NCBI GenBank assembly: GCA_937888365.1
Contig: CALBFA010000023.1
Coordinates: forward strand, 1-44,613
Reading direction: 5' to 3'
DNA length: 44,613 bases
Origin: an uncultured Fidelibacterota bacterium
Lineage (GTDB): Bacteria; Fidelibacterota; UBA8477; JABMPR01
Below the pieces are notes generated by a model that saw nothing but the letters and a program-made list of their open reading frames with translations, ran no database searches and had not been told where the DNA came from. A program made the translations under genes and the position numbers. Numbering within the stretch: position 1 is the first letter of the stretch; each line of letters starts with the position of its first letter. Below, in pieces: positions 1,653 through 32,742 of this stretch.

Positions 1653-1800
1653 TAATTATTTTTAGCTCTCAAATTATTGTGCTTATTTCTGCGTTTATCG
1701 GCGCTGTCTGCGGGAAAATAGTTTGTGTTTGCTGCCATTTTTGTATCCACGAAAACACGCGATGATCTGTTTGTGGCGGAGAAAGTAATCAAACCCAAAA

Positions 1801-1983: not shown

Positions 1984-2107
1984 GTGTGAAATTTTTTAAC
2001 CGCAGAGAGCACAGAAAATGATATTTGATTTAAGAATATCGATTAACGAGTGTTGATTTTAGAAAAATACGGCTGTTATAAACATTTGTAATTCTTACCT
2101 ACCCCTA

Positions 2108-2123
2108 CCCCTTCCGGAAGGGG
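2108..2123. repeat. GC-rich palindromic repeat core
   Basis: CCCCTTCCGGAAGGGG is a perfect 16-bp palindrome in otherwise AT-rich non-coding DNA. It resembles dispersed REP-like elements. No other copy is seen in the window. Confidence 0.4.
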
Positions 2124-2220
2124 AATAAAATAATGCTTTTCTTTGTGGCTTCGTGCCTCTGTGTGAGTTTTTTGCTTTTGATTTTCTTTGTGAAACTTGG
2201 GGCATCTTAGTGAAACGGCG

Positions 2221-2243
2221 CCTGTCCTGAGCCTGTCGAAGGG
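2221..2243. repeat. Dispersed repeat with CTTCGACAGGCTCAGGAC core
   Basis: The minus strand reads CCCTTCGACAGGCTCAGGAC, a motif familiar as an abundant intergenic repeat in many environmental Bacteroidetes-like and related genomes. It lies at the 3' side of the very long minus-strand helicase-nuclease gene. Its abundance is recalled knowledge and cannot be tested in this window. Confidence 0.45.
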
Positions 2244-2346
2244 TGTGAGATTTTTTGCACAAGCAAGATGCTTACGTTACAATTTTTGCTATAAGACTTT
2301 AGAAGATGCTTCGACGGTTATCGTTAATCGAGTGTTATGTTGCTAC

Positions 2347-5300
2347 TCAATCTTCATAACATGTCTTACGACATATCATCTCGAAATTACAATGCCTACA
2401 AGCTTCGGGAATTTGTGAGCTTATGGGAAAGTTTCCCTCGACCAGCGACATCATCCTTTCATCTATAATAGTCTGCCAATTTTCGGCGATTTCAGTACCG
2501 TTTTCCAGGATAATGTCCTTTTTTTGAGTGCATCGATCCGCGTCGCCCATAGCAACTGACAAACCATATTTCCCTGACGTAAATGATTTTAATTTTGCAT
2601 AGAATGCAGCCGTCGAAAAGGCCCTAAAGTTCTGTCTCATCGCTTGATAATACCAATAGAGTTGAGAGTCTAAAAGCGTTTCAATTTCTTTGAGTTTCGG
2701 GTCTCCCGTTTTAAAATCGATGACATCTATTGCATCGCCTCGTTTTAAAATCCAATCAATCCGACCTGAAATAACCAGGGTCTTTGAAAGCGCTTTTAGA
2801 TCAATTTCAACAGGCAACAATGTTGCATTTTCTTTTCGTGAGAAACCAGCTTCATGCCGTATTTCAACATCAGACAAATCGTCTGGAAGCAAGTGCGATA
2901 ATTCCATCAATAAATTTGAAATTAGGTTCATTTCAATGTGATTGAAATTTTTTAGGTAGAGAGCATATCGTTTTTGCGTTAATAAATCGTTTGGCAATTT
3001 GTAGCGAGACTTTAGCAACGTCTCTTTAGCTTTTTCTTCGATTTCTCGCCAAATTTCCGCCGTAGATGAGGCCTCATTTCTCAATTGTTTTAGGACGTCC
3101 TTCGTGGCCGTTGCCTCTAAAATTTCGTGGACAATATTCCCTAGTACTCGAGATTCTTCGGGTTGAGCGTCGAGTTTCTCTATCTTCAACACTTTCTCAA
3201 ACCAATATTTCTGTGGGCATTTCAGGAGCGCATTAAACGAGTGAGGCGACATTTCGATTTCAAGTTTTTCGTATGGAAAATCTGTAAAACCTTTAAAAGC
3301 GCTTTTTGTTTGATGGCTTAAAAAATCGTTGTGTCGTTGTTCTTGCCAGGTACGAGCTTTTTCGATTGTTTGATATCTTTTTGCGAAGAAGCGCTTTCTT
3401 TTTGACGTGTTGGATATCATGCTGCGATTGAGGCTTCGAACATCGCAATATTGACTAAAGGAACTTCGTTTTAATGCATCACCTGACATGTCTGATTCAC
3501 TTGACGTAAAGGAAATTGTCCCCGGTAGATAATGAACCCAATATTTGAATGTCGCTAAATTAAATCGCCAGACGTTTTCGACATCTTGATCAATATAAGG
3601 ATTGAAAGGTATAGCAACGGGGAATTGACTTTCGGTAAATCCCATGAAAATATGTTCGGTGGCTTTGGGTACCGACATTTCGAGAAAGCTGGAGATTTCC
3701 ACGCCATTTCGTTGCTCGGATGTGGCAATCTCTTTGGATTGGACTAAATCGTACCATTGATTCAGAAAATCACCCAAGGCAAATGACGTCCCTTTCATGC
3801 TTGTCCAAATTTCAGATAAATCCATCCAAGTTCGCTTTATTTCAATGACGACTCGCTGATTCATTCGATTATATGCTTCGTAGGATTCGAGAGAAAAATG
3901 ATCCAGCAATTCGAAAAACCATGACAAATTTCGGTTCGTGCGTAACGCAGATTTACCTTCATTTAGAAGCGATTCAAACGCAATGAGAGCATCAATTGCC
4001 TCTTGAGAAACACTGTTTTTCGTGTTTCGAGAGGATAATTCCTTGCTTGTCTGGATATCCTCATGGCGAATAAAAGCATCAATTTTATAGGCCTGAAGTC
4101 GTTGCCCTTTCGTAAAATCAAATAATTCAAAAGAGACGGGATGATTCCAAAGTTTCACAATGTCCATAAGTTCAAATCGTGCATTTAATGTCCGCAAGAC
4201 GGCGTAAACCCATTGGAATAAAGGTCGCTCTGTTACAGGTTCACGCTTGGAAATAAGAACCGGTATTCCATAGGATTCAAAATGGCGCTTTAAAATAGGA
4301 ATATAGCGCTCCATACTAGAGACGCCGATTCGAATTTGATGATACGCCAGTCCAGAGCGAATGCGATTGTACACCTCCGATGCCACGAATTCACATTCTT
4401 CATCAACGGATTGACACATTGTCATGACTGGAGTATGGGTCATGTTTTTCTCGGAATAATGTTTCCATGTCGCGCTGGACCATGCAAAAGAGGTCGCTAA
4501 TTTTGTCTCGAATTGATTAATAAATGTAAAAGATTTTGAAACCTCAGCGAGTTGACGAATTATTTCCGCATCTTTAAGAACGAGACCCCAATAATGATAG
4601 ACGAGAATATGCGTATTCTTCAAATGAGTCGATGCGGTTCCTTCGTGGCTATAATAGCCGTTGGCCTGACACCAATTCTGAAAAGCCAATTGAATTTTGG
4701 ACGGAAATTCATCGATAAGCGCTTCACCTTTTTCGTAACGTGCCAATAGGGCATCTGCTAAAAGCCGAATGTCGCCCCAGCGAGTTTCTTTGTCTAAAAT
4801 ATTCGACAATACAACGCGAGCATGGTGAGGGCTTAATTTTTTCTCATTCGATACCATCGACTTTATTTCAGACAATGTCTTAATCTGAATCCAAGGCGTG
4901 TTACATCCATGGGATATAAGTTGGTTTTTTAGATATTCCGCATTGCCTACAGTTGGCGCAATAACAATTGTATTTTCTTCGGAATGAAATTTTAGAAAAT
5001 CACCCACACGATTCTCGAGAGGGTTTGTTTGTGGCGCTGATAAATGCCAGTTTTTCGTTTTAAACGCCGTCTCTAATTTTTTTGCGTAGGATTGGAAATC
5101 GTTTTCAATCACGACACTCATATCATGACGGAAAAAATAGAGTTCTGCTTTTGCATCAATATTGAAACAGAATTTCAGCATCCATAAATAGCTTTGCATT
5201 TGGATCCAATACGCATGTTTCCCTTCTTCAATTCCGTCGGGAATCTGCTGGTCGGTCTTGTAGTCAATGACGCGCCATTCACCCTTTTCGTAAAGTAGTA

Positions 5301-8300
5301 AATCTAAAATTCCGCGGACTGAGAGAATGGAATCGTCGCTTTCAAGCTCTGCCGTGATGTCGATTTCGCGAAATTGCTTATCCATAGGTGTCGCCAGAAT
5401 ACGTTGATGCAATGTCGATTTTAGAAAAGTCTCTAGAAAGTTTTGAAGCGTTTGAATATAGTTTTCAATTTGAATATCGTCTAGGTCTTCTGTTAACAAA
5501 TAGTCACGAATGTCCGTTTCAAAATCATGAACATTGAGCCAATCTTCTTCCAAAACTTTGTGAACCAAAAGCCCAAATGTTTTGCCCGTAGGCGCTTCGT
5601 CAGGATTGAATTCTGCTGGAACCGTATCGGAAAATGCATTGGGAAAAATTCTATCCATGATGCCATGCGGCGACGATTGGAGTCGTTTTTTCGCGATGGG
5701 ATATTCGTATGCTTGAATAGAATTTTGAGGCGATGTTTTGCCATGATTATTATCAATTCCGTCAAGTATTTCGAAATCATTTTCATCATAAAGTTGCGCA
5801 TGAAATCCATCTACACCTGTCATAGACTCAATGTCGGATAAATTGTTGAGGCCGAATGTTGGGCCGATATAGGACGACCACCAATGGCCTTTAATCTGGT
5901 CCTTTGAATTCCCCGAACTCGAAAAAGCAACAGCATATCGTGCCCGTGTAACAGCGACATAGAGCAGTCGTTTTTCTTCTGCTTCGTTCTCTAAACGATT
6001 CTGTTTTTGGATGCGTTTATGCGCATTCGTTTTCGCAGAGGTGTCAATTTCTTGGAGGGAAATACCACATTCATATTCACCTGAATCGTCTTTGCTTGAT
6101 AAAATACCGTCCCGATCACTTTGCGAGCGGCCGTCCAATTCAGGCAAAATGACCGTAGGAAATTCAAGCCCCTTCGCTTTGTGAATGGTCATGATTTGCA
6201 CGAGTGAAGTCTCAGAATTGTCCGCGAGGGCTTTGTCCGAGTTTGTTAGGTCGTAGGTGAATGTGTCATGAATTTCTCGTAGGTTTTTCCCCGCCAATGA
6301 CTGAATATGAAGAAGGTGAATCAGCTTATCAATATTGTAGATGCGATTTTCCCCAGTGGATTCCGTGAGCCATCCCAACAGCCGATCGTCCTGATGAATA
6401 ATTTCGTCTAGAATCCTATCAATGGGCCTTGATGCACATTCATTTTGCCATTGATAAATGGTCGAATAGACATCAGGATAATATCGCTTTAAGGCATCCC
6501 AATAATAGCCCGAAATTGAAGATTGTCTTTTTGACGTATCGTCATTTTGACCCATCAGGCTTTGAATATTTGCATCTGACATGGCAATAAATGGCGAACG
6601 CAGTAAGCCAATTAATGCAAGATTATCAAAAGGATTAATCATAACCGAGAGCCAATTAAAAAGGTCGAACGCTTCTTGAGTTTTGTACAAACCCTTACTG
6701 GCAACGACCTGAAAGTCGATTCCCATTTCGGTAAAAACTTTTATATAGGTCTCAATATTTGTAAATTTTCGCAGCAATACGCCAACGAACGGACTTTTTT
6801 CTTTTTCCAAACCATGTGCTTCACGGAAATCTAGATAGCGACGAATTTGCATGGCGGCGAGTCTAGCATGATTCGTAGAGTTGGCATTTTCGTCCGATAA
6901 AAGGTTAAAATCGACTTGAAGCAAAACATGATTTTTAGAGCCTAATGGCGCATCATTTTCGGGTGTAATAGTCGGCGAAAAAACGGTGTCATAAAGAGGT
7001 GTATGCTTAGGGTTTTCTTGAAAAAATACTGTTTCCATCAATGGATTGATGACCTGAGAAACAAATGCTTTTGATGAACGGAAGGTGATATCACGAGACA
7101 ATATTTCGTCTGGTTTAAAAATCTTTTCAACGCGGTTCATAACTTCTACATCTGCATTATTAAAGCGATAAATGGACTGCTTACTATCGCCGACAATAAA
7201 CAATCCTTGCGTGGGAAAGACATCGCTGCCACCTTTTGCAATCGTGGAAATAAAATCCCATCTCACGTCATTCGTATCTTGAAATTCGTCGAGTAAAATA
7301 TGCGAATATCGTTTTCCGAGGCGTTGTGCGACATGAGGATTCTCTGTCACTAATTTTTTGGCAAGATAGGCGATATCATTAAAAGAATAGAGATTTTGAT
7401 TGGCGAAAGTTTGGCGCAATTTTTCTTGAAAAGGACGAAAGAAGCGTACAATATTTTTGGTCACTAAAAGTGCGTCAAAGTCAGTTTGCGATGCGATGGA
7501 ATTGTATAATTCTACTGGCCAAATAGCGCTTAATTGCGCACCTAATGCCTTAATACAACTAATCAAAGACGCGTAATATTCTAGGTCTAAAAAATTCTTT
7601 TTCTTAAAATCGAATCTTGAAAGATATTTCATGCCCTTGCTATGAAGGAGCAAAACGCCGACGCTTTTGATTAAACGTGAAGCAGAGAGATAGTCCTGTG
7701 GATTGCAGGATTGTAGCGCATCTTTGAACTCTAATAATTGCGTGTATTTCTTTTCGTTGATGTCTATTACAGCGCTTTTGGGTGGGATGCATCGCGCCAA
7801 TATTTCGAATTCTGGAATTAATTCCGAAAGATTTTCGGGTAATGGATTTCGTAGAATGAGCTCTTGTTTGAGTGTCTCTAAATCGCTTTCAAATTGATGT
7901 TGAATCCAAAAACTCAAACGATATTGATGCTTCCATAAATATTTTAAATAGGACTCAACTTGAAAGACACTCAATGTTTCTAAAAGTTGACGTAATAGGA
8001 CATCATGATCAGAACTCGCTTTGTGAAGATACGCATCAAGCGCTTCCTCTACTTGCTTTTTGATGTTGTCTTCGTCGTCAGTCATAAAATCAGGATCAAT
8101 ATTCAATATGGATGCAAATTCCCGGACAATTTTTGCGGAGAAGCTATCAACGGTGGAGATGGCATTTTGCGCAAGAGTCGATTGTAAGTCCAATTTTTCA
8201 GATTCTGTCAATCCAATTAAATGCTGACCATAACTAGGCGGTAATCCCTCAAGTTTTTCGCCACTGAGTAATTTGCTCAAGTCATCATAAATGCGTTGCG

Positions 8301-8508
8301 CCATTTCATTGGCGGCTTTTTTGGTAAAAGTAATAACAAGAATATTTTTAGCGGACACATCCGTTTTATTTGCTTTTGACTGACGTATAAAGTCATCTAA
8401 AATATGATTATAACGCTTTGAAAGGAGCCAGGTTTTCCCTGATCCTGCACAGGCTTTTATGAATATGTTTTTTTCTAAATCCAAAGCTTTATCAATAAAA
8501 GCATCCAT
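2347..8508 (-). CDS. Fused AddA-AddB helicase-nuclease in one polypeptide
   Basis: This 2053-residue protein appears to join the two subunits of AddAB, the enzyme that resects double-strand DNA ends for RecA repair. The first half is AddA-like: UvrD-type motif I ACAGSGKT (about 19-26), Ia ITFTKKAANEM, II LLDEFQDT (about 407), III GDSKQSIYRF (about 440), V TIHKAKGLEF (about 774) and VI YVAVTRAR (about 850). It ends in a RecB-type nuclease, GILDLLLY...VIDYKTD (about 1066-1086). The second half, from about 1165, is AddB-like, with a degenerate P-loop region (IVIAPTVGNAEYL). A second nuclease GRIDWI...VIDFKTGD (about 1930) is framed by Cys about 1765 and C-terminal CxxCx5C, the AddB iron-sulfur pattern. 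The start at 8508 has AAGGA seven bases upstream; the frame is open to 8559. No internal stop separates the halves. A single-chain AddAB is unusual, since the subunits are normally separate genes. Confidence 0.85.
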   Translation of the reverse strand: MDAFIDKALDLEKNIFIKACAGSGKTWLLSKRYNHILDDFIRQSKANKTDVSAKNILVITFTKKAANEMAQRIYDDLSKLLSGEKLEGLPPSYGQHLIGLTESEKLDLQSTLAQNAISTVDSFSAKIVREFASILNIDPDFMTDDEDNIKKQVEEALDAYLHKASSDHDVLLRQLLETLSVFQVESYLKYLWKHQYRLSFWIQHQFESDLETLKQELILRNPLPENLSELIPEFEILARCIPPKSAVIDINEKKYTQLLEFKDALQSCNPQDYLSASRLIKSVGVLLLHSKGMKYLSRFDFKKKNFLDLEYYASLISCIKALGAQLSAIWPVELYNSIASQTDFDALLVTKNIVRFFRPFQEKLRQTFANQNLYSFNDIAYLAKKLVTENPHVAQRLGKRYSHILLDEFQDTNDVRWDFISTIAKGGSDVFPTQGLFIVGDSKQSIYRFNNADVEVMNRVEKIFKPDEILSRDITFRSSKAFVSQVINPLMETVFFQENPKHTPLYDTVFSPTITPENDAPLGSKNHVLLQVDFNLLSDENANSTNHARLAAMQIRRYLDFREAHGLEKEKSPFVGVLLRKFTNIETYIKVFTEMGIDFQVVASKGLYKTQEAFDLFNWLSVMINPFDNLALIGLLRSPFIAMSDANIQSLMGQNDDTSKRQSSISGYYWDALKRYYPDVYSTIYQWQNECASRPIDRILDEIIHQDDRLLGWLTESTGENRIYNIDKLIHLLHIQSLAGKNLREIHDTFTYDLTNSDKALADNSETSLVQIMTIHKAKGLEFPTVILPELDGRSQSDRDGILSSKDDSGEYECGISLQEIDTSAKTNAHKRIQKQNRLENEAEEKRLLYVAVTRARYAVAFSSSGNSKDQIKGHWWSSYIGPTFGLNNLSDIESMTGVDGFHAQLYDENDFEILDGIDNNHGKTSPQNSIQAYEYPIAKKRLQSSPHGIMDRIFPNAFSDTVPAEFNPDEAPTGKTFGLLVHKVLEEDWLNVHDFETDIRDYLLTEDLDDIQIENYIQTLQNFLETFLKSTLHQRILATPMDKQFREIDITAELESDDSILSVRGILDLLLYEKGEWRVIDYKTDQQIPDGIEEGKHAYWIQMQSYLWMLKFCFNIDAKAELYFFRHDMSVVIENDFQSYAKKLETAFKTKNWHLSAPQTNPLENRVGDFLKFHSEENTIVIAPTVGNAEYLKNQLISHGCNTPWIQIKTLSEIKSMVSNEKKLSPHHARVVLSNILDKETRWGDIRLLADALLARYEKGEALIDEFPSKIQLAFQNWCQANGYYSHEGTASTHLKNTHILVYHYWGLVLKDAEIIRQLAEVSKSFTFINQFETKLATSFAWSSATWKHYSEKNMTHTPVMTMCQSVDEECEFVASEVYNRIRSGLAYHQIRIGVSSMERYIPILKRHFESYGIPVLISKREPVTERPLFQWVYAVLRTLNARFELMDIVKLWNHPVSFELFDFTKGQRLQAYKIDAFIRHEDIQTSKELSSRNTKNSVSQEAIDALIAFESLLNEGKSALRTNRNLSWFFELLDHFSLESYEAYNRMNQRVVIEIKRTWMDLSEIWTSMKGTSFALGDFLNQWYDLVQSKEIATSEQRNGVEISSFLEMSVPKATEHIFMGFTESQFPVAIPFNPYIDQDVENVWRFNLATFKYWVHYLPGTISFTSSESDMSGDALKRSSFSQYCDVRSLNRSMISNTSKRKRFFAKRYQTIEKARTWQEQRHNDFLSHQTKSAFKGFTDFPYEKLEIEMSPHSFNALLKCPQKYWFEKVLKIEKLDAQPEESRVLGNIVHEILEATATKDVLKQLRNEASSTAEIWREIEEKAKETLLKSRYKLPNDLLTQKRYALYLKNFNHIEMNLISNLLMELSHLLPDDLSDVEIRHEAGFSRKENATLLPVEIDLKALSKTLVISGRIDWILKRGDAIDVIDFKTGDPKLKEIETLLDSQLYWYYQAMRQNFRAFSTAAFYAKLKSFTSGKYGLSVAMGDADRCTQKKDIILENGTEIAENWQTIIDERMMSLVEGNFPISSQIPEACRHCNFEMICRKTCYED

Positions 8509-8735
8509 ATTTGAGTCCTTTTTAACGTTCATTTTGCGCCAGAAATTATTTGATAACACCCTTAAACATCAACATTATACATGACATGGTTCTCAATATA
8601 ACCATCAATGAGCATAGGACATCATAGAGAATTGGTTTATATTTCTTTCGCTTTGGAGGGTACATAATTATCATAAGAAGCCTTGAAATGAAAACTGCTT
8701 GAAGCTAAAATATGTTTGGTAAAAGGAAAAAGAGA

Positions 8736-9674
8736 ATGAAACGAGCCATTATTATTTCGACAGTCATTATAATGTTTATTTATTTCATTATAGTTTTTGA
8801 ACGCAGCACGATACCCCTAACGAGTCCTCCATATACGCTCCAAATACAAGTTGAGAATATTGTGTCAGGTTTTGAAGGAGACGTTGGTGTGTACGTCCAT
8901 AATTATGCAACAGGAGAATCAGTTTCTATCAATTCCGATACGCTTTATCCTACGGCAAGCATGATTAAAATTCCCATTATGCTAACTCTTTTTCAAGAAA
9001 TTCAAGAGGGTCGCCTCGATTATCATGACGATCTTATTTATACGGATTCGCTACTTTATCCTGGCGATGATATTGTGGGGTCGTTTGTCGATGGTGAAAA
9101 TATTGCCTTAAGTAAACTTGTTTTTTTAATGGCAAGTGTGAGCGATAATACGGCCAGTTTATGGCTTCAATCTTTAGCGGGGACAGGTACAAATATTAAT
9201 AAATGGCTCGAAGAGAATGGCTTTGAATCGACGCGTGTAAATTCTCGAACACTTGGGCGAGAAGACGGTTATGGCAAGTTTGGATGGGGACAAACGACAC
9301 CGAGAGAAATGGCACATCTTGTGACGTTAATTCATGACCGAAAAGCCGTTAGTCCGGCAGCCAGTGACGAAATGTATAGAATGTTGACACATAGTTATTG
9401 GAGCGGCGAGGCTTTGTCTGCCATACCGCCATTTGTCCAAGTCGCGTCGAAGCAAGGCGCAGTGAGTGAGTCGCGGTCGGAGGTTTTGTATGTTAATGCG
9501 CCATCGGGTGACTATGTTTTTTGCATTATAACGAATAAACAAAAAGATTTAAGCTGGGATTACGACAACGATGGATTTGTGTTGATTCGAAAAATATCGA
9601 CACTTCTTTGGCAATATTTTGAGCCCAATTCATCTTGGAAACACGCTGAGGGCTTTGAAAAATGGACCCGATAG
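8736..9674 (+). CDS. Class A beta-lactamase-fold serine hydrolase, membrane-anchored
   Basis: A 312-residue protein with an N-terminal hydrophobic anchor or signal (residues 2-20) and a beta-lactamase2-type domain. The class A motifs are present: SMIK with nucleophile Ser75 and Lys78, SDN at 136-138, and KQG at 239-241 in place of KTG. The TTPREMA segment after the omega loop is also typical. The omega loop itself (GREDGYGKFGWGQ) lacks an obvious ExxLN deacylation glutamate. The protein could therefore be a peptidoglycan carboxypeptidase-like or other serine hydrolase rather than a resistance enzyme. The start at 8736 has AAGGA eight bases upstream; an ATG at 8712 has no ribosome site. It is divergent from the AddAB-like gene and 12 bases before the aldo/keto reductase, so those two are probably co-transcribed. 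Confidence 0.75.
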   Translation: MKRAIIISTVIIMFIYFIIVFERSTIPLTSPPYTLQIQVENIVSGFEGDVGVYVHNYATGESVSINSDTLYPTASMIKIPIMLTLFQEIQEGRLDYHDDLIYTDSLLYPGDDIVGSFVDGENIALSKLVFLMASVSDNTASLWLQSLAGTGTNINKWLEENGFESTRVNSRTLGREDGYGKFGWGQTTPREMAHLVTLIHDRKAVSPAASDEMYRMLTHSYWSGEALSAIPPFVQVASKQGAVSESRSEVLYVNAPSGDYVFCIITNKQKDLSWDYDNDGFVLIRKISTLLWQYFEPNSSWKHAEGFEKWTR

Positions 9675-9686
9675 AGAGACGGTAAT

Positions 9687-10595
9687 ATGAAAAAATATTT
9701 TATAGGGTCGAGTCATCTTTCATCCTCTCGTTTGATGGTTGGAACCATGCGCATTGCAGGGGATGGTTCGACGCAAGCCATCAATCATGGAAAGAAATTA
9801 CTTTTGACGGCTATTGATAATGGAATAAATCATTTTGATTTTGCTGATATTTATGGAAAAGGAATGTCAGAATCTATCATGGGTGATGTTTTGAAGGACA
9901 GTCCTCATTTGAGACGTGAACTTATTTTTACGAGCAAATGTGGCGTTAAAAAGGCGGAGGGTTCGCGGCCTCCTCGATACGATTTATCCAAGCTACATAT
10001 TATCAAATCCGTCGAAGCATCTCTGAAGCGACTCAACACCTCCTATTTGGACATGCTTCTTCTCCATAGACCTGACTTTCTAATGAATCCATCAGAAATT
10101 ACCGAAACATTTGATACGCTTTTTCATAGCGGAAAAGTCAATCATTTTGGCGTAAGTAATTTTTCTGCTTCCCAGGTCAATATGCTACAATCCAAAATTA
10201 ATTTCCCCATTATGGCCAATCAAGTTGAGATAAATCTTCATCGTATTGATGCATTAACCGACGGCGTATTGGATCAATGTCAGGCACAAAATATTAGCCC
10301 TCAAGCTTGGTGCCCATTGGGTGGTGTCGCATATTCTGCATGGGGAAATACGTTTGCCGCCGCTGATGAATTACGCATTGAAAAAGAGTTGAAATATCAA
10401 GCGGAAAAATACCGAACGGAAGAATCGATTATTGCTCTGGCTTGGTTGTTAAAACATCCCGCGACTATTTTTCCTATCATTGGGAGTACGAATCCTGAGC
10501 GCATTATTAAAGCCCTAGAAGCTCTTGAAATTCCGTATAAGTCCGACGATTGGTATCGACTTTTAGAAGCGCGAAACGGATTCCCTGTCGCATAA
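9687..10595 (+). CDS. Aldo/keto reductase family oxidoreductase
   Basis: A 302-residue TIM-barrel NAD(P)H-dependent carbonyl reductase of the YdhF-like branch. The catalytic tetrad is visible as Asp51 and Tyr56 (HFDFADIYG), Lys84 (TSKCG) and His127 (LLLHRPD). GVSNFSASQ and NQVEINLH follow in the expected order, and the C-terminal cofactor-binding segment is IIGSTNPERI. Length is normal for the family. It lies 12 bases after the serine hydrolase gene. The substrate cannot be read from the sequence. Confidence 0.88.
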   Translation: MKKYFIGSSHLSSSRLMVGTMRIAGDGSTQAINHGKKLLLTAIDNGINHFDFADIYGKGMSESIMGDVLKDSPHLRRELIFTSKCGVKKAEGSRPPRYDLSKLHIIKSVEASLKRLNTSYLDMLLLHRPDFLMNPSEITETFDTLFHSGKVNHFGVSNFSASQVNMLQSKINFPIMANQVEINLHRIDALTDGVLDQCQAQNISPQAWCPLGGVAYSAWGNTFAAADELRIEKELKYQAEKYRTEESIIALAWLLKHPATIFPIIGSTNPERIIKALEALEIPYKSDDWYRLLEARNGFPVA

Positions 10596-10623
10596 TAATT
10601 GAATCAAAAAAAGGAATATACAA

Positions 10624-11094
10624 ATGAATAAAAAAATAAAAATCACTTCAATCGTTGCTGTTCTATATGTAATTGCTTTTCTTTTTACAGGAAAACATAC
10701 AAATCCACCTGTCAGCAACACAGTGTCTTGGGATTCGCCTGAGACAGAAGCTACTTTTTACCGAGCCTGCGCAGATTGCCACAGCAACGAAACGAAATGG
10801 CCTTGGTATTCAAATTTTCCACCTGTTTCATGGGCAATTATCCTTCATGTAAACGAAGGTCGCGAGCATTTTAATATTTCAGTCCCTAAAATGGGTCATG
10901 CTGACGAAGCCGCCGAAGAGGTTGAATTTGACAATATGCCGATGGGACAATATCGCATCATGCATCCCGAAGCACTTTTAAATGATGCTGAGCGCACCAT
11001 TTTTGTTGATGGCTTAAAAGCGACTTTTGGTGCATCAAAATCTGAGAATCATGACGACGATGACGATGGTGATGACGAGCGTCATCACAACTAA
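10624..11094 (+). CDS. Haem-binding domain protein, exported
   Basis: A 156-residue protein with an N-terminal hydrophobic segment (about 7-22) that anchors or exports it. The domain FYRACADCHSNETKWPWYSN (about 41-60) with one CxxCH site is characteristic of the small Haem_bd domain family, often found in periplasmic single-haem proteins of Bacteroidetes-like bacteria. A conserved NMPMGQYRIMHPEA segment follows. The C-terminus is an Asp/His-rich tail (DDDDDGDDERHHN) that may bind metal. AAGGA lies eight bases before the ATG. It ends three bases from the convergent NlpC/P60 gene. Confidence 0.75.
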   Translation: MNKKIKITSIVAVLYVIAFLFTGKHTNPPVSNTVSWDSPETEATFYRACADCHSNETKWPWYSNFPPVSWAIILHVNEGREHFNISVPKMGHADEAAEEVEFDNMPMGQYRIMHPEALLNDAERTIFVDGLKATFGASKSENHDDDDDGDDERHHN

Positions 11095-11097
11095 TTC

Positions 11098-12333
11098 TTA
11101 ATATTCTACTAAATAACTAAACCGCATGGCGCGATCGGTTTCATGAAGTTCGTGGCCGATACCAATCCATGTGTATTCGATACTTGACGATTTATTGAGT
11201 GCGACTCGAAAGCCTCCATTCCATGTCATTCCCCAATCGTCAAATCCTATATGGTCAATTTCCATAATCCCCAGTAAACGTTTTGATAGCTGCTGTTCCC
11301 AGCCGACAAATCCGTAGTAATCTGAGGAGACATCAAATGGATGATCGGTTTCGTAAAATCCGTACATATTTGTAAACGTCATTCCAGCGGTGATACGACC
11401 TTGCTTCAATGTTGTTGGCTCGAGTCTGTCATAGCTGTAACCTAAGACTAAAAATGCGTTTTTAGGCGGACTCCATCGTGATTCTGTCCATGCTGTATCG
11501 CTTGGCGTTTCCTCGTGAAATATAGACCATTTCCGAGAGAGGGATTCGGAACCGATGGTGATGGAAGGAATATCATTATTTTGCTCATAAATCTTGATTT
11601 TGCTATAAAAAAATGGCGTCTCGAAACTGGGAGTTTCGCTCCCAAGAAATTGATTAATCTGAACCTCAACGCCGCCTTCAAATCGATTCCAGAAACTCGC
11701 CGCAATGCCCATTCTAAAATCACCGCCGAGGTAATTTTGAACATCAACACCGAGAAATCTATTTTCAACGACTTCGCAGGTTGGGATATTGACGAGTCGA
11801 TAAATAGGCATCAAATAAGACGATGACATGACAACACGTTCATAAGCTGTTTCGCCCATTTTTAAGGGAGAGCCAGCCAATCGCCGCGCACCGATATATT
11901 TATTTTCCCAATAGGGTTCATTTATATATACGCGAGTCACGCCTTTGGATGTCCCAGCATGAACCATTTGATTCTTTCCGACATAAACACCCACATGACT
12001 CACGCCTTTTCCTAAAGTATCGTAAAATATTAGATCACCGTATTTTAAATTATTTCGACGCACTTTATCGCCAACGGTATATTGCATACGTGAAGTTCGT
12101 GGTAATAAAACGCCCTGATCCTCATAAACAGCACATGTTAAACCCGAGCAATCGACGCCAGATTTTGGAAGATTTCCACCCCATTTGTAAGGGGTCCCTA
12201 TAAATTTATTAAGAGACGATTCCATCTTACTTTTATCGACATCTTCAAATATTTCGGAAGATTGGTTCGTCGCAGCACATTGATATAAAAAAGAAATTAA
12301 AAACGAAAATAGGACTGGTTTTATAAATTTCAT
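11098..12333 (-). CDS. NlpC/P60 lipoprotein with a beta-rich C-terminal extension
   Basis: A 411-residue protein. A hydrophobic N-terminus ends at Cys19 (FLYQC), a plausible though non-ideal lipobox. Residues about 38-150 form an NlpC/P60 peptidase domain with catalytic Cys62 (VDCSGL), His113 (SHVGVYVG) and His125 (VHAGTSKG), which normally cleaves peptidoglycan stem peptides. The remaining 260 residues alternate aromatic and polar residues, repeat W-N-G-G-F-type strands and end in a tyrosine (SYLVEY), as outer-membrane barrels do. The combination suggests an outer-membrane-attached cell-wall hydrolase, or a hydrolase carrying its own barrel-like anchor. That architecture is unusual and is an inference. 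It is convergent with the haem-binding gene. Confidence 0.75.
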   Translation of the reverse strand: MKFIKPVLFSFLISFLYQCAATNQSSEIFEDVDKSKMESSLNKFIGTPYKWGGNLPKSGVDCSGLTCAVYEDQGVLLPRTSRMQYTVGDKVRRNNLKYGDLIFYDTLGKGVSHVGVYVGKNQMVHAGTSKGVTRVYINEPYWENKYIGARRLAGSPLKMGETAYERVVMSSSYLMPIYRLVNIPTCEVVENRFLGVDVQNYLGGDFRMGIAASFWNRFEGGVEVQINQFLGSETPSFETPFFYSKIKIYEQNNDIPSITIGSESLSRKWSIFHEETPSDTAWTESRWSPPKNAFLVLGYSYDRLEPTTLKQGRITAGMTFTNMYGFYETDHPFDVSSDYYGFVGWEQQLSKRLLGIMEIDHIGFDDWGMTWNGGFRVALNKSSSIEYTWIGIGHELHETDRAMRFSYLVEY

Positions 12334-12418
12334 GCGATACTCTTTTTTGTTGCGACAATCTTACCCCTTTTCGATTGGTTTTTCAAGAAGAATATCCACG
12401 TTTTAATTATTAGAAAAA

Positions 12419-12853
12419 CTAGATGTCAGAATGATATTTCATGAGAAAATGTGGAATATTAGCTTCAATAAAACGTTCGCCACATTTTTGAAATCCCAAT
12501 TTCGCATAAAAGGGCATGACGCGTTCTTGGGCGTGTAAATAGATGGTTTTCGATAAATCAACGTGCGTTAAGCAAAATTGTACCAGCGCTTCTCCGACCC
12601 TAAGTCCTCTTGCTTTCTTTAATACGGCAAAACGCTCGAGCTTGATGCCTTTTTCTGTAGATCGCCATCGGGCCGTTGCGACACTCTCGTGATTCAATGT
12701 CGCTAAAATATGAACCGAACCGTTTTCATATTCATCATATTCGATATCTCTATCAACATTTTGTTCTATGACAAACACTTGATTTCGGATTTCAAAAGCC
12801 TGTTTCATTTCGTCCTGACTTTTGATTATGTGAATCGAAATACTATTTTTCAC
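12419..12853 (-). CDS. GNAT family N-acetyltransferase
   Basis: A 144-residue single-domain acetyltransferase. The opening AFEIRNQVFVIEQNVD and the acetyl-CoA-binding loop KKARGLRVGEALVQF (about 79-93) fit the GNAT fold, and YAKLGFQKCGERF is the usual C-terminal element. The N-terminal pattern resembles the ElaA-like branch. The substrate is unknown. It is separated by about 90 bases from the end of the suf operon, so it may be read through from it or have its own promoter. Confidence 0.85.
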   Translation of the reverse strand: MKNSISIHIIKSQDEMKQAFEIRNQVFVIEQNVDRDIEYDEYENGSVHILATLNHESVATARWRSTEKGIKLERFAVLKKARGLRVGEALVQFCLTHVDLSKTIYLHAQERVMPFYAKLGFQKCGERFIEANIPHFLMKYHSDI

Positions 12854-12944
12854 AATATAATTCTATTCTGATTGAGGCAAATTATTTCGAAACGATGTCA
12901 AAATATCACCCTGTAGGGAAGAGTAATTATCGCCTCTTTTACGG

Positions 12945-14183
12945 TCATTTCGGCTGTGATTCGACACTAAATATTTTAAGAATATTCTTTATTGAATTGA
13001 CGAGGATATCAATTTCTTCGCGTGTGTTATAAAAATATAGACTGGCGCGTGTTGTTGCCGGGACTCTCAATCGCTCCATGAGAGGCTGAGCGCAATGATG
13101 ACCTGCACGAACCGCAATACCATCGGCGTCTAAAAATTGCGCCATGTCATGAGGATGGACAAATTCGGAATGGAAACTTAAAATGGCGCCTCGATTTTCG
13201 CGCGTTCCAAAAACTTTAATAGTGTCCAATTCTTCAAATTTTGATAGTGCATACTGGGTTAATTCATGTTCATATTGATGAATAGAATCGATTCCAAGTT
13301 CATTGATATAATCAATTGCTGCACCGAGTCCAATTACTTGGGCGATGTTCGGTGTACCCGCCTCAAATTTATGAGGCAAATCATTCCATTTTGATGACTG
13401 TAAACCGACTTGACTAATCATGTCGCCACCAAAAAGAAACGGCGGCATTGCATTTAAAATGTCAGTCTTGCCATAAAGGACGCCCACACCTGTCGGCGCC
13501 AACATTTTATGGCCGGAAAAAACGAGAAAATCACAGCCGAGATTTTGGACATCTACGGACATGTGAGGCACGGATTGGGCTGCATCTATTAAGATTTTTG
13601 CACCTTTGTCATGCGCATATGTAATGATGTCTTTTACAGGATTTATGCTTCCTAAAACGTTCGATTGGTGGGTTATCGCGACAAATTTTGTTTTCTCAGA
13701 AAAATAGTTTCGCCAATCTTCAACGAGTGTTCCATCATCCGTAATGGGGATATATTTAAGTTGGCATCCTGTCGTTTCGGCGACTTGTTGCCAAGGCACA
13801 ATATTGCTATGATGTTCCATTTCAGAATAGAGAATCTCATCGCCAGGCTTTAAAAATGTTCGTCCATATGCATAAGCAACCAAGTTGATGGATTCTGTTG
13901 TGCCTTTCGTAAAAATTATGGAAGCTGATTTTTCGGCATTGATGAATTTCTGAACTTTTACCCGTGCGTCTTCATATTTTATGGTTGCTCTTTCACCCAA
14001 TTCATAGACAGATCGATGGATATTGGCGTTGTCATTTTCATAAAACGAACTCACGGCTTTAATCACCGACTTGGGTCGTTGTGTTGTTGCTGCGTTATCG
14101 AGATAAATAAGGGGTTTCCCGCGGGAACTTTGAAAAAGTACTGGAAAGTCGTTTCGTATTTTATCAACGTCAAAAGTCATCAC
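12945..14183 (-). CDS. sufS: SufS cysteine desulfurase
   Basis: A 412-residue PLP enzyme that removes sulfur from L-cysteine for Fe-S cluster assembly. The PLP lysine is Lys226 in FSGHKMLAPTG and the persulfide cysteine is Cys364 in RAGHHCAQPL. The substrate-binding TKGTTESIN and EMEHHSN segments are typical of group II (SufS) desulfurases. It is the last gene of the suf operon, 16 bases after sufT. In many Gram-positive-type operons sufS lies between sufD and sufU, so its terminal place here is a variation. The protein starts with two adjacent Met codons and either could be used. Confidence 0.95.
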   Translation of the reverse strand: MMTFDVDKIRNDFPVLFQSSRGKPLIYLDNAATTQRPKSVIKAVSSFYENDNANIHRSVYELGERATIKYEDARVKVQKFINAEKSASIIFTKGTTESINLVAYAYGRTFLKPGDEILYSEMEHHSNIVPWQQVAETTGCQLKYIPITDDGTLVEDWRNYFSEKTKFVAITHQSNVLGSINPVKDIITYAHDKGAKILIDAAQSVPHMSVDVQNLGCDFLVFSGHKMLAPTGVGVLYGKTDILNAMPPFLFGGDMISQVGLQSSKWNDLPHKFEAGTPNIAQVIGLGAAIDYINELGIDSIHQYEHELTQYALSKFEELDTIKVFGTRENRGAILSFHSEFVHPHDMAQFLDADGIAVRAGHHCAQPLMERLRVPATTRASLYFYNTREEIDILVNSIKNILKIFSVESQPK

Positions 14184-27083: not shown

Positions 27084-27111
27084 TTGACAGCCCCTTTACC
27101 TTACTTATATT
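27084..27111 (+). promoter_or_regulatory. Sigma-70 promoter of the rho operon
   Basis: TTGACA (27084-27089) and TATATT (27106-27111) are 16 bases apart and close to consensus. Initiation near 27118 would give a leader of about 100 bases before rho. In other bacteria rho leaders mediate autoregulation; nothing here proves that. Confidence 0.75.
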
Positions 27112-27218: not shown

Positions 27219-28472
27219 ATGACACACAGTATTAATAAGCTCCAGAAAATGACATTAAAGGAACTCGCTTCCATAGCTCAAGAGCTAGCGGTTCCGGCTA
27301 TAGCAGGATTAAAAAAGACCGAATTGGTGGAGGCAGTATTAGAAGCTCAAACCGAATCTGTTGGATTACTTTTTACGAAGGGGGTTTTAGAAACCCTTCC
27401 TGATGGATATGGTTTTTTACGATTTCCTGAGAATAATTATCTCGCCGGAAAAGATGATGTTTATGTTTCACCGTCTCAAATTAAACGCTTCGGTCTTAGA
27501 ACGGGTCAGGTCATTTATGGCCAAGTTCGACCCCCAAAAGATAATGAGCGTTATTTTGCTTTATTAAAAGTTGAAGCTATTAATTTTCAAGATCCTGAAG
27601 AAGGTCGAATTATTCCTAAATTCAATACCTTGACGCCTTTATATGCGAAAGACAAATTAAAATTAGAGCGTGGTCCAAGAAGTTATTCGATGCGGATTAT
27701 GGATTTATTAAGCCCTGTTGGTAAAGGCCAGCGTGCCTTGATTACGGCTCAGCCTAAAACGGGTAAAACCATGTTACTCCAAGACATTGCTAACTCTATT
27801 GTTAAAAACCATGCTGATGTCGAACTCATTGTTCTTCTCGTGGACGAAAGACCTGAAGAAGTGACAGACATGAGGCGAATGGTTGACGCTGAAGTCGTGG
27901 CATCAACATTTGATGAGCCACCCGAACGTCACGTTCAAGTCGCTGATATGGTTTTGAATAAAGCAAAGCGCATGGTTGAATTCGGAAAAGATGTCGTGAT
28001 TCTTTTGGATAGTCTGACGCGTTTGGCGCGAGCCCATAACGCCGTCATTCCTCATAGTGGCAAAATTTTGTCTGGTGGTATTGACTCCAATGCTTTACAT
28101 CGACCTAAACGCTTTTTTGGTGCCGCTCGTAATGTTGAAAATGGTGGGAGTTTAACCATCATCGCAACTGCACTTATTGAAACAGGCTCCCGAATGGACG
28201 ATGTTATTTTTGAAGAATTCAAAGGCACAGGAAATATGGAACTCGTTCTAGATCGCCGTCTTAGTGACAGAAGAATCTTTCCCGCTATTGATATTTTACG
28301 CTCTGGCACGCGGAAAGAGGAGCTCCTTTTAACCAAGGCAGAACTCAGTCGTGTATGGGTCATGCGAAAGTTCTTGAACGAGATGACTCCCGTCGAAGCG
28401 ATGGAATTCCTTTTGGATAAAATGAAAAAATCAGGAACGAATAAGGATTTACTAGGTTCCATGAGTTCTTAA
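27219..28472 (+). CDS. rho: Transcription termination factor Rho
   Basis: A 417-residue hexameric RNA-dependent ATPase that ends transcription. The Rho_N helix domain ([10 protein letters not shown]...[10 protein letters not shown]) covers residues 1-45. The RNA-binding cold-shock-like domain [16 protein letters not shown] starts near 55. The P-loop is TAQPKTGKT (176-184) and Walker B is [14 protein letters not shown]. The Q- and R-loop region [20 protein letters not shown] is present. It is the first gene of a run continuing through the Cas6-like gene to prfA. Confidence 0.97.
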
Positions 28473-28502
28473 CAAAGAAGTCGTGGGAACAGGAGAATAT
28501 TT

Positions 28503-29168
28503 ATGTTGGTAAACACACTATTTCTGCGAATGAAAACAGATCTGCTCTTTGACAGAGCTCCTTATCATATACGTCAAAGTATTGGCGAGGCCTTTGCTGA
28601 TCAAGCGATAGACGAGTATATTAATGGCGATAAACGCTCTGAATTCACCTATCCACGACTGCAGTTTAAAGTTTTACAAGGCGATCCTTGTATTATTGCT
28701 ATTGGTGAAGATGCTGTTGAGGCCATGCGTGAAATAGTTCCCGATCTTGAAGAGCTCGAAATTAACGGCATCATTTATAAAATTGTTGAAAAAGAAATCG
28801 TTGATGACGAAGTTGCAATTGGACCGTCAAAAACATTCATTAATTATCAATTTATTACACCATGGATTGGTCTCAATGAAGAAAATTTTCTACAATTCAA
28901 ATACTATTACAAACAAGAGCGAACTGCATTTATCAATCGCCTTGTCGTGCAAAATTTGCGATTTTTGTCTCAAGAATTTGGCATTCAGGCTGGCGACAGA
29001 ATAAATATTAAAAGTAGAATTCGTTTTTTAACAAACCAATCTCTTACTTCTTCACCGACAGGTGGATTTGTTGGGGATTTTAAAATCAATTATAATATCC
29101 CTGACTATATCAGTATTGGAAATATGATTGCTAAAGGATTTGGTGCAATTAAGCGTGTCGAAGTATAA
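28503..29168 (+). CDS. Cas6b-like protein without CRISPR neighbours
   Basis: A 221-residue protein whose block order matches the Cas6b family of CRISPR RNA endonucleases: an N-terminal helix (APYHIRQSIGEAF), then TYPRLQFKVLQGDP and IIAIGEDAVEAM. A central YQFITPWIGLNEENF follows, and the C-terminal block is GGFVGDFKINYNIPDYISIG, then AKGFGAIKRV. At the place where canonical Cas6b proteins have an HNH-type catalytic histidine before the YPxxQ(Y/F)K strand, this one reads YINGDKRSEF. The usual histidine seems absent, though His23 is nearby. AGGAG lies eight bases before the ATG. The gene sits 30 bases after rho and before an aminotransferase, rpmE and prfA, so it may have a housekeeping RNA role. 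The family call is from recalled motif patterns. Confidence 0.65.
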   Translation: MLVNTLFLRMKTDLLFDRAPYHIRQSIGEAFADQAIDEYINGDKRSEFTYPRLQFKVLQGDPCIIAIGEDAVEAMREIVPDLEELEINGIIYKIVEKEIVDDEVAIGPSKTFINYQFITPWIGLNEENFLQFKYYYKQERTAFINRLVVQNLRFLSQEFGIQAGDRINIKSRIRFLTNQSLTSSPTGGFVGDFKINYNIPDYISIGNMIAKGFGAIKRVEV

Positions 29169-29241: not shown

Positions 29242-30435
29242 GTGAGCAATCGTTTTACAAATAGAATCAACATGTTACAGCCTTCTGCGACTATGATGGT
29301 TATCAAAAAAGCTGCAAATATGCGGGCGCAAGGCGTTGATATTATTTCCTTCGGAGCTGGAGAGCCTGATTTTGATACGCCTGAAGTTGTCATTGGTGCT
29401 GCAGTCAAAGCCATGGAAAATGGTAAAACTCGCTACACACCTGGTTCGGGTACTACTTCTTTAAAAAAATCAATCGCTCATAAATTAAAGCGTGACAATC
29501 AACTACACTATGAACCCAAACAAATTGTTGTTTCGAATGGTGCAAAACACTCATTATTTAATGCTTGTATGACTTTGCTTCAAGACGGTGATGAAGCGAT
29601 TCTTTTTTCACCTTTTTGGGTAACCTATCCTGAAATCGTAAAATTAGCAGGGGCAACACCTGTTTATGTTGAGACAATTGCCCGTAATGGATTTCAAATA
29701 TCAATGGCATCCCTAGAAGCGGCTGTTTCAAAGAATACGAAACTTATTTTTGTCAATACGCCATCGAATCCAACAGGCGCCATATTAAATAAGGAATCCC
29801 TGAAAAATATTGTCGCTGTAGCGAAAAAGCGTGACCTTATTATTCTTTCAGATGAGTGCTATGAAGCCCTTACTTATGACGAACCTCATGTCAGTATCGC
29901 ATCTTTACCCGATGCCTACGAACGGACTATTACGATTCAAAGTATGTCCAAAGTTTATGCAATGACAGGTTGGCGAATTGGATATACAGCCTCTTCTGTA
30001 GAGTGTGCAAATGCTATGGCCAAGTTTCAAGGTCAGGCAACAGGCTGTCCCAATAGTATTGCTCAAGAAGCAGCTGATTTTGCATTGTCACATGAGCATC
30101 CTTATTTAGGGAAATGGCGAGACGCCTTTAAAGAACGACGTACTTACATGGTCAATGCACTCAATGAAATACCTGGTTTTGAAACACTGATGCCGAAGGG
30201 AGCTTTTTATGCGTTTCCTAATGTTTCGGCTTTTTACGGAAAAGAACTCGATGGTGTCGTCATCAATAGTTCGCTTGATTTGACAAATATTTTGCTTGAA
30301 AAAGCGCATGTTGCCGTCGTCCCTGGCGGACCTTTTGGAGCAGACGATTACATTCGTCTCTCTTATGCAACATCGATGGAAAATATTATCGAAGGAATAA
30401 ATAGAATAACAAAATTAATGAACACCTTAAGTTAA
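29242..30435 (+). CDS. Aspartate aminotransferase, class I-gamma
   Basis: A 397-residue PLP enzyme that transfers the amino group between aspartate and 2-oxoglutarate or related acids. Seen are [45 protein letters not shown] and [15 protein letters not shown] with PLP Lys237, then RLSYATS near the end. It starts with GTG: AGGAG is six bases upstream, and the nearby ATG at 29238 is out of frame. It is probably co-transcribed with its neighbours. It could instead prefer prephenate, as some members do. Confidence 0.93.
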
Positions 30436-30449: not shown

Positions 30450-30656
30450 ATGAAACAAGGAATTCACCCAAAATACGAGCTCGCAACAGTTAATTGTGCT
30501 TGTGGAAATACATTTCAAACGCATAACACCGTCGGTGATATGAAAGTAGAAATCTGTAATGTTTGCCATCCATATTTTTCTGGGAAACAAGTACTTTTAG
30601 ATACGGCTGGACGTATTGACAAATTTCGTAAAAAATACGGTCCTGTTGCTAAATAA
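30450..30656 (+). CDS. rpmE: Ribosomal protein L31, zinc-binding type
   Basis: A 68-residue L31 with the start MKQGIHPKY. It has both CxC (NCACGN, Cys16 and Cys18) and CxxC ([12 protein letters not shown]), so it is the zinc-binding C+ form. Its place behind rho and near prfA is conserved in many bacteria. AAGGAT lies shortly upstream of the ATG. Confidence 0.97.
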
Positions 30657-30688: not shown

Positions 30689-31675
30689 ATGCGAAATGTT
30701 TTTCGGTATTTACGTTTAGTATTGTTCATGGCTGAGCAGACCATACTTGTTGGAGGACAAGCCATTATCGAAGGTGTGATGATGCGTGTTCCAGGAGCGT
30801 ATGCTATCGCTGTTCGAAACCCTCGAAATGAAATCGTGAAAAAACGGTGGAATTATACGTCATGGTCCGACACCCATACTTGGTTAAAAACACCGGTATT
30901 ACGCGGAGCCATTGCGTTAATTGAGTCCATGAAAATGGGCATCCAAACACTCAACGAATCTGCGGATATCGCCTTTGAAGAAGAGCTCGCACCTGAAACA
31001 TTTTGGACGAAGCTTCAGTCTTTTTTAGGAACTGTCCTTGCGTTAGGTATCGGACTCGGTCTCTTTTTTGCGACTCCCATTATCGTCTCCACCAAGATAT
31101 TTCATCTGGAAAATACGGCTTTTTCATTTAATGTCATTACAGGCATCATTCGAATTGCATTGTTTTTACTATACTTGTGGGCAATTTCTCTCATGAAAGA
31201 TGTCAAACGTTTATTCCAATATCACGGTGGCGAGCACATGGCGGTCTATACATTTGAAAGTGGAAAAGAATTGACCATTGAAGAAGCTCGTAAATTCCCA
31301 ACTCAGCATCCCCGCTGTGGAACGAGTTTTATTTTCATCGTTTTACTGGCTTCAATTTTTATGTTCGCCATCATTGACTCCATAGCGATGATGTTTATTC
31401 AAACCCCAACAATCGCCACACGACTTTTAACTCATTTGCCATTGATGCCTCTTGTCGCTGGCGTGAGTTACGAGCTGCTCAAGCTTACATCAAAATATCG
31501 CCGTTTTGCGTGGGTGCGCGCTCTTTCGGCTCCAGGGCTCTGGCTTCAAAATATTACAACATCCGTTCCCGATGATGACCAACTCCAAGTCGCATTGGAT
31601 TCCTTAAAAGAAGCTTTCGGTGAGAAGCTCAATGATTTTACAGGGAAAACCTACGTCGCCGAGGCTATCGATTAA
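30689..31675 (+). CDS. DUF1385 (YqhQ-like) membrane protein
   Basis: A 328-residue protein with the DUF1385 signature [20 protein letters not shown] (about 22-41). It also has [15 protein letters not shown] and [16 protein letters not shown], and about four membrane segments. The family is often found beside rpmE and prfA. Its biochemical role is unknown. GAGG about 10 bases upstream supports the start at 30689; an internal ATG at 30728 ([10 protein letters not shown]) has no ribosome site but matches the usual N-terminus. Its stop overlaps the prfA start by one base. Confidence 0.88.
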
Positions 31676-32742
31676 TGAAACTACTCGACAAATTCGACCA
31701 AATTGAATCTCGGTTTAAAAACTTAGAAACGCAACTAAGTCAACCTGACGCTGCAAGCGACCCAAAGAAATTTGCCGAATTAGCACGTGAGCATAGCGAA
31801 GCTCAAAACCATTATGAAGCATTTATTATTTACAAAGATTTGAATGATCTCGTTGTTGAAGACGATGAAATTCTAAATGGAAATGATGATGAATTAAAAG
31901 AACTCGTTCGCGAAGAATATGAAGATTTAGTCGCTGAACGCGATGCTCAAGAAAATAAAATAAAGATGATGCTCGTTCCCCGTGACAAACTTGATGCTAA
32001 AAACGCAATTGTCGAAATTAGAGCTGGAACGGGTGGCGATGAAGCCGCTATTTTTGCTGGCAATCTTATGCGAATGTATCAACGATACGCCGAAAATAAA
32101 GGTTGGAAAATCGAGACGATTGCACTCAATCAGACCGAGGCGGGTGGCTTAAAAGAAGTCTCTGTTCAGATTAGTGGTGATAGTGTTTACGGGACATTAA
32201 AATTTGAAAGCGGTGTCCATCGGGTTCAACGTGTCCCGGAGACGGAATCTCAAGGTCGCGTTCATACGTCTGCTGCGACAGTAGCCGTTTTGCCCGAGGC
32301 AAAAGCCGTCGATGTACAGGTTTTAGAATCCGATTTACGAATCGATACTTATCGTGCGTCAGGAGCTGGTGGTCAGCATGTCAATAAAACAGAGTCTGCT
32401 ATACGCATCACGCATATTCCTTCGGGGACGGTCGTAACGTGTCAGGACGAAAGTTCTCAGCACAAGAATAAAGAAAAGGCTATGAAAGTTCTTTACTCTC
32501 GCATGCTTGCCGTTGAGCAAGAAACAGAAGCTAAAAAGCGCGCTAATATGCGCAAAAGTCTTGTTTCCACAGGAGACCGTTCGGCTAAAATTCGTACCTA
32601 TAATTATCCACAAGGTCGCGTCACAGATCATCGCATCAATTTAACGCTCTATCGTTTAGAAGAGATTCTTAATGGCGATTTAGATGAACTACTGGAGAGT
32701 ATTGTCACGGCTGATTTAATCAATCGTTTAGATGAAATCTGA
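31675..32742 (+). CDS. prfA: Peptide chain release factor 1
   Basis: A 355-residue release factor that ends translation at UAA and UAG. GGQ is at 232-234 ([15 protein letters not shown]). The codon-recognition tripeptide is PET in [15 protein letters not shown] (188-190), the P-x-T form specific to RF1 and not the SPF of RF2. A TAATG junction couples it to the DUF1385 gene. It is probably the last gene of the rho operon. Confidence 0.97.

What the first reader, a model, noticed from the sequence alone, without database searches (positions are those of the whole stretch)
28503..29168. Cas6b-like gene embedded in the rho-rpmE-prfA cluster with no CRISPR nearby
The protein follows the Cas6b block order (YPRLQFKV, PWIGLNEENF, FVGDFKINY...GFGAIKRV). 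It lies 30 bases after rho and upstream of aspC-like, rpmE and prfA, and no array or other cas gene occurs in 44.6 kb. A Cas6-fold protein in a conserved termination/translation operon suggests a domesticated RNA-binding or RNA-processing role, perhaps acting on transcripts linked to Rho.
Basis: partly seen in the sequence, partly recalled or inferred. Interest (0 to 1): 0.78.

Follow-up and report, generated by a model that had tools for sequence, protein, structure and literature searches.

The report
Domesticated CRISPR Cas6b beside rho
In the uncultured ocean phylum Marinimicrobia (SAR406), a protein from the CRISPR immune system (Cas6b, which normally cuts CRISPR RNA) has lost its catalytic histidines and left CRISPR, and is now inherited with the transcription-termination gene rho across most of the phylum, so it probably serves ordinary gene expression rather than immunity.

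Summary
Window 28503-29168 encodes a 221-aa Cas6b (Pfam Cas6b_N and Cas6b_C above cut-off; AlphaFold model matches PDB 4z7k, TM 0.84), 30 nt after rho with its own ribosome-binding site and no predicted terminator between. The genome (95% complete) has no detectable Cas1, Cas7, RAMP or second Cas6b. The phylum is Candidatus Marinimicrobia/Neomarinimicrobiota. About 126 of 245 genomes carry this type. In all 108 loci examined it lies directly after rho, even in 12 loci where aspC does not follow. Where the gene is absent, rho runs straight into aspC or rpmE. Rho-linked copies form one clade (98/91), apart from every CRISPR Cas6b tested, including true type I-B copies in the same genomes. The HxH histidine pair, kept in nearly all CRISPR Cas6b, is absent from all 108, while the fold, Gly-rich loop and RNA-site residues remain. 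It evolves with Rho (r=0.81) under purifying selection. Most members carry a charged tail with a unique terminal motif. Best reading: a phylum-wide domesticated Cas6b, an RNA-binding factor of the rho operon. Domestication is well supported; the Rho-related mechanism is inferred, and residual RNase activity cannot be excluded. I found no published description.

The parts
27084..27111 (+). sigma-70-like promoter TTGACA-16-TATATT upstream of rho
   Evidence: consensus scan, 11 of 12 matches; similarly placed promoter-like sequence in relatives
27219..28472 (+). rho, transcription termination factor
   Evidence: homologous rho directly upstream of cas6b in 108 loci
28473..28502 (+). 30-nt rho-cas6b gap with Shine-Dalgarno AGGAG (28491-28495), no terminator predicted
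   Evidence: gaps of about 7-62 nt in the relatives sampled
28503..29168 (+). rho-linked Cas6b paralogue, 221 aa
28506..28811 (+). Cas6b_N domain (residues 2-103), first ferredoxin-like fold
   Evidence: Pfam PF17955, E 1.1e-12; model
28614..28628 (+). residues 38-42 (EYING): position of the catalytic HxH of CRISPR Cas6b, here without His; G42 conserved in 107 of 108 rho-linked copies, R45 in 103 of 108
28827..29159 (+). Cas6b_C domain (residues 109-219), second ferredoxin-like fold
   Evidence: Pfam PF17262, E 1.1e-23
29133..29144 (+). Gly-rich loop K-G-F-G (residues 211-214), retained; G212 and G214 invariant
29242..30435 (+). aspC-like aminotransferase, next gene in most loci
   Evidence: directly downstream in 94 of 106 loci with room
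30450..30656 (+). rpmE (ribosomal protein L31)
30689..31675 (+). DUF1385 protein
31675..32742 (+). prfA (release factor 1)

Best explanation
A type I-B-like Cas6b was captured once, early in Marinimicrobia, into the gap between rho and aspC, and has been inherited vertically since, with about eight losses. It lost the catalytic histidine pair but kept the double ferredoxin fold, the Gly-rich loop and most residues it shares with CRISPR Cas6b. It is expected to be made with Rho from one mRNA. I propose that it binds a specific RNA feature without performing crRNA cleavage and acts as an RNA-binding accessory factor of the rho operon, most simply guiding or limiting Rho on chosen transcripts (possibly its own), with the charged tail and terminal motif of most members contacting a partner. 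Shown: family, fold, conserved rho adjacency, one clade, His loss, purifying selection, no detectable CRISPR system in this genome. Inferred: co-transcription, RNA binding without cleavage, action on or with Rho.
For: Family and fold. Synteny in 108 of 108 loci, and rho kept even where aspC does not follow (f6, f12, f19, f24 and others). Precise absence state, rho-aspC or rho-rpmE. One clade, 98/91, against CRISPR Cas6b from this and other phyla. HxH in CRISPR copies, 0 of 108 in rho-linked. Rho/Cas6b distance correlation 0.81, best of 1000 permutations 0.23. dN/dS mostly 0.02-0.2 in close pairs where dS is finite. No Cas1/Cas7/RAMP/repeat in this genome; Cas1 in only 31 of 245 genomes. Five genomes hold both types. 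Tail motif in 79 of 79 tailed copies, once per genome in 16 of 18 genomes searched.
Against: No RNA ligand, expression or binding data. SsoCas6 lacks the histidine and still cuts (PMC3652601), so RNase activity may persist. No Rho site tracks presence of the gene. The gene has been lost about eight times, so it is not essential everywhere. The terminal tail motif is missing from several families including the window's, so it cannot be part of a universal mechanism.
Confidence: 0.6

Rival explanations
1. It is still an RNase: a domesticated Cas6b that cuts one or a few cellular RNAs with a rebuilt active site (for example the conserved Arg45 region), such as processing the rho operon mRNA.
For: The fold and RNA-site residues are kept; new residues are conserved where the histidines were (G42 in 107 of 108, R45 in 103 of 108). 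SsoCas6 cuts without histidine (PMC3652601).
Against: The HxH pair is otherwise near-universal in Cas6b of other phyla and is missing from all 108 rho-linked copies; no conserved target hairpin was found. The conserved stretch upstream of rho looks like a promoter.
Confidence: 0.22
2. Position only: a domesticated RNA-binding protein of translation or another process (aspC-rpmE-prfA operon) that uses the rho promoter and has nothing to do with Rho.
For: The operon also holds rpmE and prfA; no Rho residue tracks the gene.
Against: In 12 of 106 loci aspC does not follow, yet rho is always upstream; the rho-linked type was never found away from rho.
Confidence: 0.14
3. It is an ordinary Cas6b serving a CRISPR array elsewhere in the genome, merely displaced.
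For: PADLOC and Pfam call it Cas6/Cas6b without reservation; a few rho-linked genomes do have Cas1 (12 of about 126).
Against: No Cas1, Cas7, RAMP or I-B-type repeat in this genome; Cas1 is not enriched in carriers (12/126 against 19/119, p=0.18); I-B loci of the phylum have their own HxH Cas6b; clade split 98/91.
Confidence: 0.04

Closest known systems
Cas6b of type I-B CRISPR (M. maripaludis, PDB 4z7k/4z7l; Pfam PF17955 + PF17262)
   Same: Sequence family, fold (TM 0.84), Gly-rich loop, conserved YP..Q.K, TPW, N151 and N196 positions
   Different: HxH catalytic histidines absent, no CRISPR or cas genes around, locked to rho, separate clade
SsoCas6 (Sso1437), Cas6 with atypical active site (PMC3652601)
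   Same: Cas6 fold without the catalytic histidine
   Different: SsoCas6 is responsible for generating crRNA; the Marinimicrobia protein lies in a housekeeping operon
Exapted CRISPR parts (e.g. Streptomyces cas5-cas6-cas7-cas8 next to a STAND NTPase, CRISPR-associated transposons; reviewed in PMC8730458)
   Same: Cas proteins reused outside adaptive immunity
   Different: Those are multi-gene effector modules; here a single Cas6 has been fixed in a core operon through much of a phylum
Rho cofactors NusG, Rof/YaeO, Psu, Hfq (from general knowledge, not tested here)
   Same: Proposed role: protein that modulates Rho on chosen RNAs
   Different: Unrelated folds; Hfq itself scores below its Pfam cut-off in all 245 Marinimicrobia genomes

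Membership tests
Cas6b protein family (by descent) | Pfam Cas6b_N and Cas6b_C above curated cut-offs | tested here: met
   48.4 and 84.1 bits against 25 and 39.4
Cas6b protein family (by descent) | Two ferredoxin-like (RRM) domains in the Cas6 arrangement | tested here: met
   AlphaFold pLDDT 88.9; best PDB match 4z7k TM 0.84
Cas6b protein family (by descent) | Gly-rich loop near the C-terminus | tested here: met
   G212 and G214 invariant in 108 rho-linked copies
Cas6b crRNA endonuclease (by function) | Catalytic histidine pair (HxH, His38/His40 in 4z7k numbering) | tested here: not met
   0 of 108 rho-linked copies have the pair; nearly all CRISPR copies that cover the site do, and the second His is in every one shown
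Cas6b crRNA endonuclease (by function) | Encoded with a CRISPR array and cas operon, or such a system in trans | tested here: not met
   No array in window, no Cas1, Cas7, RAMP or I-B-type repeat in own genome; limited by draft assembly
Cas6b crRNA endonuclease (by function) | Cleaves CRISPR repeat RNA | not testable with these tools
   Needs biochemistry
Rho cofactor | Genetically linked to rho (supportive, not sufficient) | tested here: met
   Directly downstream of rho in 108 of 108 loci
Rho cofactor | Binds Rho or changes Rho-dependent termination | not testable with these tools
   No correlated Rho residue seen, which is weak evidence either way

The most novel reading that the evidence does not exclude
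A nuclease-dead Cas6b has become a phylum-wide RNA-binding regulator of Rho-dependent termination (or of the rho operon mRNA), i.e. a CRISPR processing protein recruited as a core transcription factor in an abundant uncultured marine lineage.
Probability: 0.4. Interest if true: 0.9.

Novelty: new variant of a known kind. Interest (0 to 1): 0.78.

Why it matters
Domestication of CRISPR parts is usually seen as whole effector modules, often on mobile elements. Here a single Cas6 has been fixed in a housekeeping operon across more than 50 genera of an abundant uncultured marine phylum, with its own conserved residues and, in most members, a new tail. It supplies a natural experiment on what Cas6 does without its catalytic histidines (PMC3652601 argues that the RNA-recognition and chaperone-like side of Cas6 may matter as much as cutting), a candidate Rho partner in a phylum where no Hfq above cut-off was found, and a caution: annotation tools (PADLOC, Pfam) will report a CRISPR Cas6 in genomes that show no CRISPR.

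Tried and rejected
Displaced CRISPR component: rejected. Chance motif or false Cas6 call: rejected. Recent capture or pseudogene: rejected (single clade, purifying selection). Rho residues that change when the gene is lost: none. Conserved RNA target near rho: the conserved stretch upstream of rho reads as a promoter; I did not run a structure test on it. Tail motif shared with a second protein: not seen, at most one site per genome. Hfq replacement: Hfq is below cut-off phylum-wide, in carriers and non-carriers alike, so not informative. An L241 (G066) Cas6-like ORF was left out of the tree as another Cas6 type; the Cas6b fragment L116 was left out as incomplete.

Full report
What is there. 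Window 28503-29168 (+) encodes a 221-residue protein. It matches both Pfam Cas6b domains above their cut-offs, PADLOC Cas6/Cas6b at 7e-44 and 3e-40 and the solved M. maripaludis Cas6b 4z7k at 3e-23. The AlphaFold model (pLDDT 88.9, pTM 0.86) finds 4z7k first in the PDB (TM 0.84), so it has the double ferredoxin-like Cas6 fold. Rho ends 30 nt upstream; AGGAG precedes the ATG, no terminator is predicted in the gap, and a good sigma-70-like promoter (TTGACA-16-TATATT) lies upstream of rho. The downstream order is aspC-like, rpmE, DUF1385, prfA.

No CRISPR system in this genome. The window holds no array. In the 2.53-Mb, 95% complete genome there is no Cas1, Cas7, RAMP or other Cas6b, and no site within 3 mismatches of the phylum's I-B repeat type. 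These negatives are limited by draft assembly and by the repeat type searched.

A phylum-wide rho partner. Named relatives are Candidatus Marinimicrobia/Neomarinimicrobiota (SAR406). Of 245 genomes in the phylum, 130 carry a Cas6b; four of these have only the CRISPR type, so about 126 carry the rho-linked type (synteny was checked for 108 loci; the remainder rest on the sequence match alone). All 108 have rho directly upstream on the same strand (the automatic check counted 107, and I put the one difference down to overlapping stop-to-stop frames). The gaps sampled run from about 7 to 62 nt; one locus, L072, has about 400 nt. AspC follows in 94 of 106 loci with room; in the other 12 (families f6, f12, f19, f24 and others) rho is still upstream. 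So the constant neighbour is rho. Where the gene is absent, rho runs directly into aspC (f1 g2, f7, f8, f25, f29 G222) or rpmE (f9). On a Rho tree the presence/absence pattern needs nine changes, one of which (G140) is a contig end; a single gain with several losses is the simplest history, though the root is not inferred.

One clade, separate from CRISPR Cas6b. Nine Cas6b genes of the phylum are not rho-linked. Several of them lie in type I-B operons (cas6b-cas8b-cas7-cas5-cas3-cas4-cas1 order read from ORFs; Pfam confirms Cas8b/TM1802, Cas7 and Cas1 in examples), some with arrays. An IQ-TREE tree with these, Cas6b from other phyla and 4z7k puts all 48 rho-linked representatives in one group (98/91), and most in-phylum CRISPR copies group with foreign ones. 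Five genomes (G026, G031, G102, G115, G210) hold both types.

What changed and what stayed. CRISPR Cas6b carry H-x-H just before the YP motif: nearly every copy that covers the site has the pair (L104 has N-N-H) and the second His is always present. Two histidines were implicated in catalysis in M. maripaludis Cas6b according to PMC3652601; that they are His38/His40 follows from counting along 4z7k and from memory of the original work, which was not held. None of 108 rho-linked copies has the pair (nine have some His in the wider segment, but not the motif); instead G42 (107/108) and R45 (103/108) are conserved. Y50, P51, Q54, K56, Y115, W121, N151, F189, G191, N196, P200, G206, G212 and G214 are kept in both types. 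So the RNA-site framework stays while the known catalytic pair goes. Because SsoCas6 cuts RNA without histidine (PMC3652601), this makes loss of activity likely, not certain.

Selection and co-inheritance. dN/dS in close pairs is mostly 0.02-0.2, with saturated dS in some pairs. Rho and Cas6b distance matrices correlate at 0.81 across 100 loci; the best of 1000 permutations was 0.23. Shared species history explains such a correlation by itself, so it shows vertical inheritance, not contact. I looked for Rho residues that change when the gene is lost and found none.

The tail. In 79 rho-linked copies the protein continues for 60 or more residues rich in charged residues (21% K/R, 19% D/E), and all 79 end with [FY]-N-x-x-x-[YFH]-H. 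Using a DNA pattern for the longer form, exactly one site was found in each of 16 of 18 genomes and none in the other two; its positions agree with this gene. In a model of a tailed member residues 241-270 are predicted with moderate confidence and the last 20 residues are unstructured (pLDDT under 50), as one would expect of a short partner-binding motif. The window's own protein and families f2, f3, f6, f28 and f29 lack this tail, so it is an elaboration.

Mechanism. The most economical reading is an RNA-binding protein, descended from Cas6b, made with Rho and acting in gene expression. Steps shown: descent, fold, rho adjacency, catalytic-pair loss, selection, no detectable CRISPR system in this genome. 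Steps inferred: co-transcription, RNA binding, no cleavage, Rho as the functional partner. Alternatives are a re-tooled RNase, or a factor that only shares the operon. That the histidine pair is ancestral and was lost is inferred from its presence in Cas6b of other phyla and from the probable match of one His to PfuCas6 His46 (PMC3652601); the tree itself is unrooted.

CRISPR co-occurrence. Cas1 is found in 31 of 245 genomes: 12 of about 126 carriers, 19 of about 119 non-carriers (p=0.18). The gene is thus not coupled to CRISPR in either direction.

Literature. Searches for Cas6 with rho, Marinimicrobia, exaptation and orphan/solo/inactive Cas6, and for SAR406 with CRISPR, found no description; passages in PMC8730458, PMC6452270 and PMC12669027 discuss Cas6 and exaptation but not this. 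The library is open-access only.

Noticed in passing
L104 (G115:C18) 10469-13375 and 7887-8555: A Cas6b (N-N-H rather than H-N-H) lies upstream of a Cas12a (Cpf1) ORF cut by the contig end; an unusual pairing of a class 1 processing enzyme and a class 2 effector.
   Followed up: partly
L057, L059, L061, L063, L080, L048, L054, L036, upstream of rho: About 90 nt upstream of rho are highly conserved and look like a sigma-70 promoter (TTGCTT-17-TATAGC) followed by a conserved mRNA start ACAAGGCAATTCCCC.
   Followed up: partly
whole phylum: Hfq is below its Pfam cut-off in all 245 Marinimicrobia genomes.
   Followed up: no
L225-L229 (family f7, small genomes): rho is followed by aspC and then an L31 with a different, longer sequence (weak match to the window's RpmE, perhaps the type B form); cas6b is absent.
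   Followed up: no
L241 (G066:C12) 1744-12074: A locus with Cas1 and an array at 10899-12074 and a divergent Cas6-like ORF at 7587-8270; some of its ORFs look type III-like.
   Followed up: no
L078 and L096 (G149): One genome bin holds two rho-cas6b loci; it is 5% contaminated, so possibly two organisms.
   Followed up: no
window 1-55 and 1932-1986: A 55-nt direct repeat, 91% identical.
   Followed up: no
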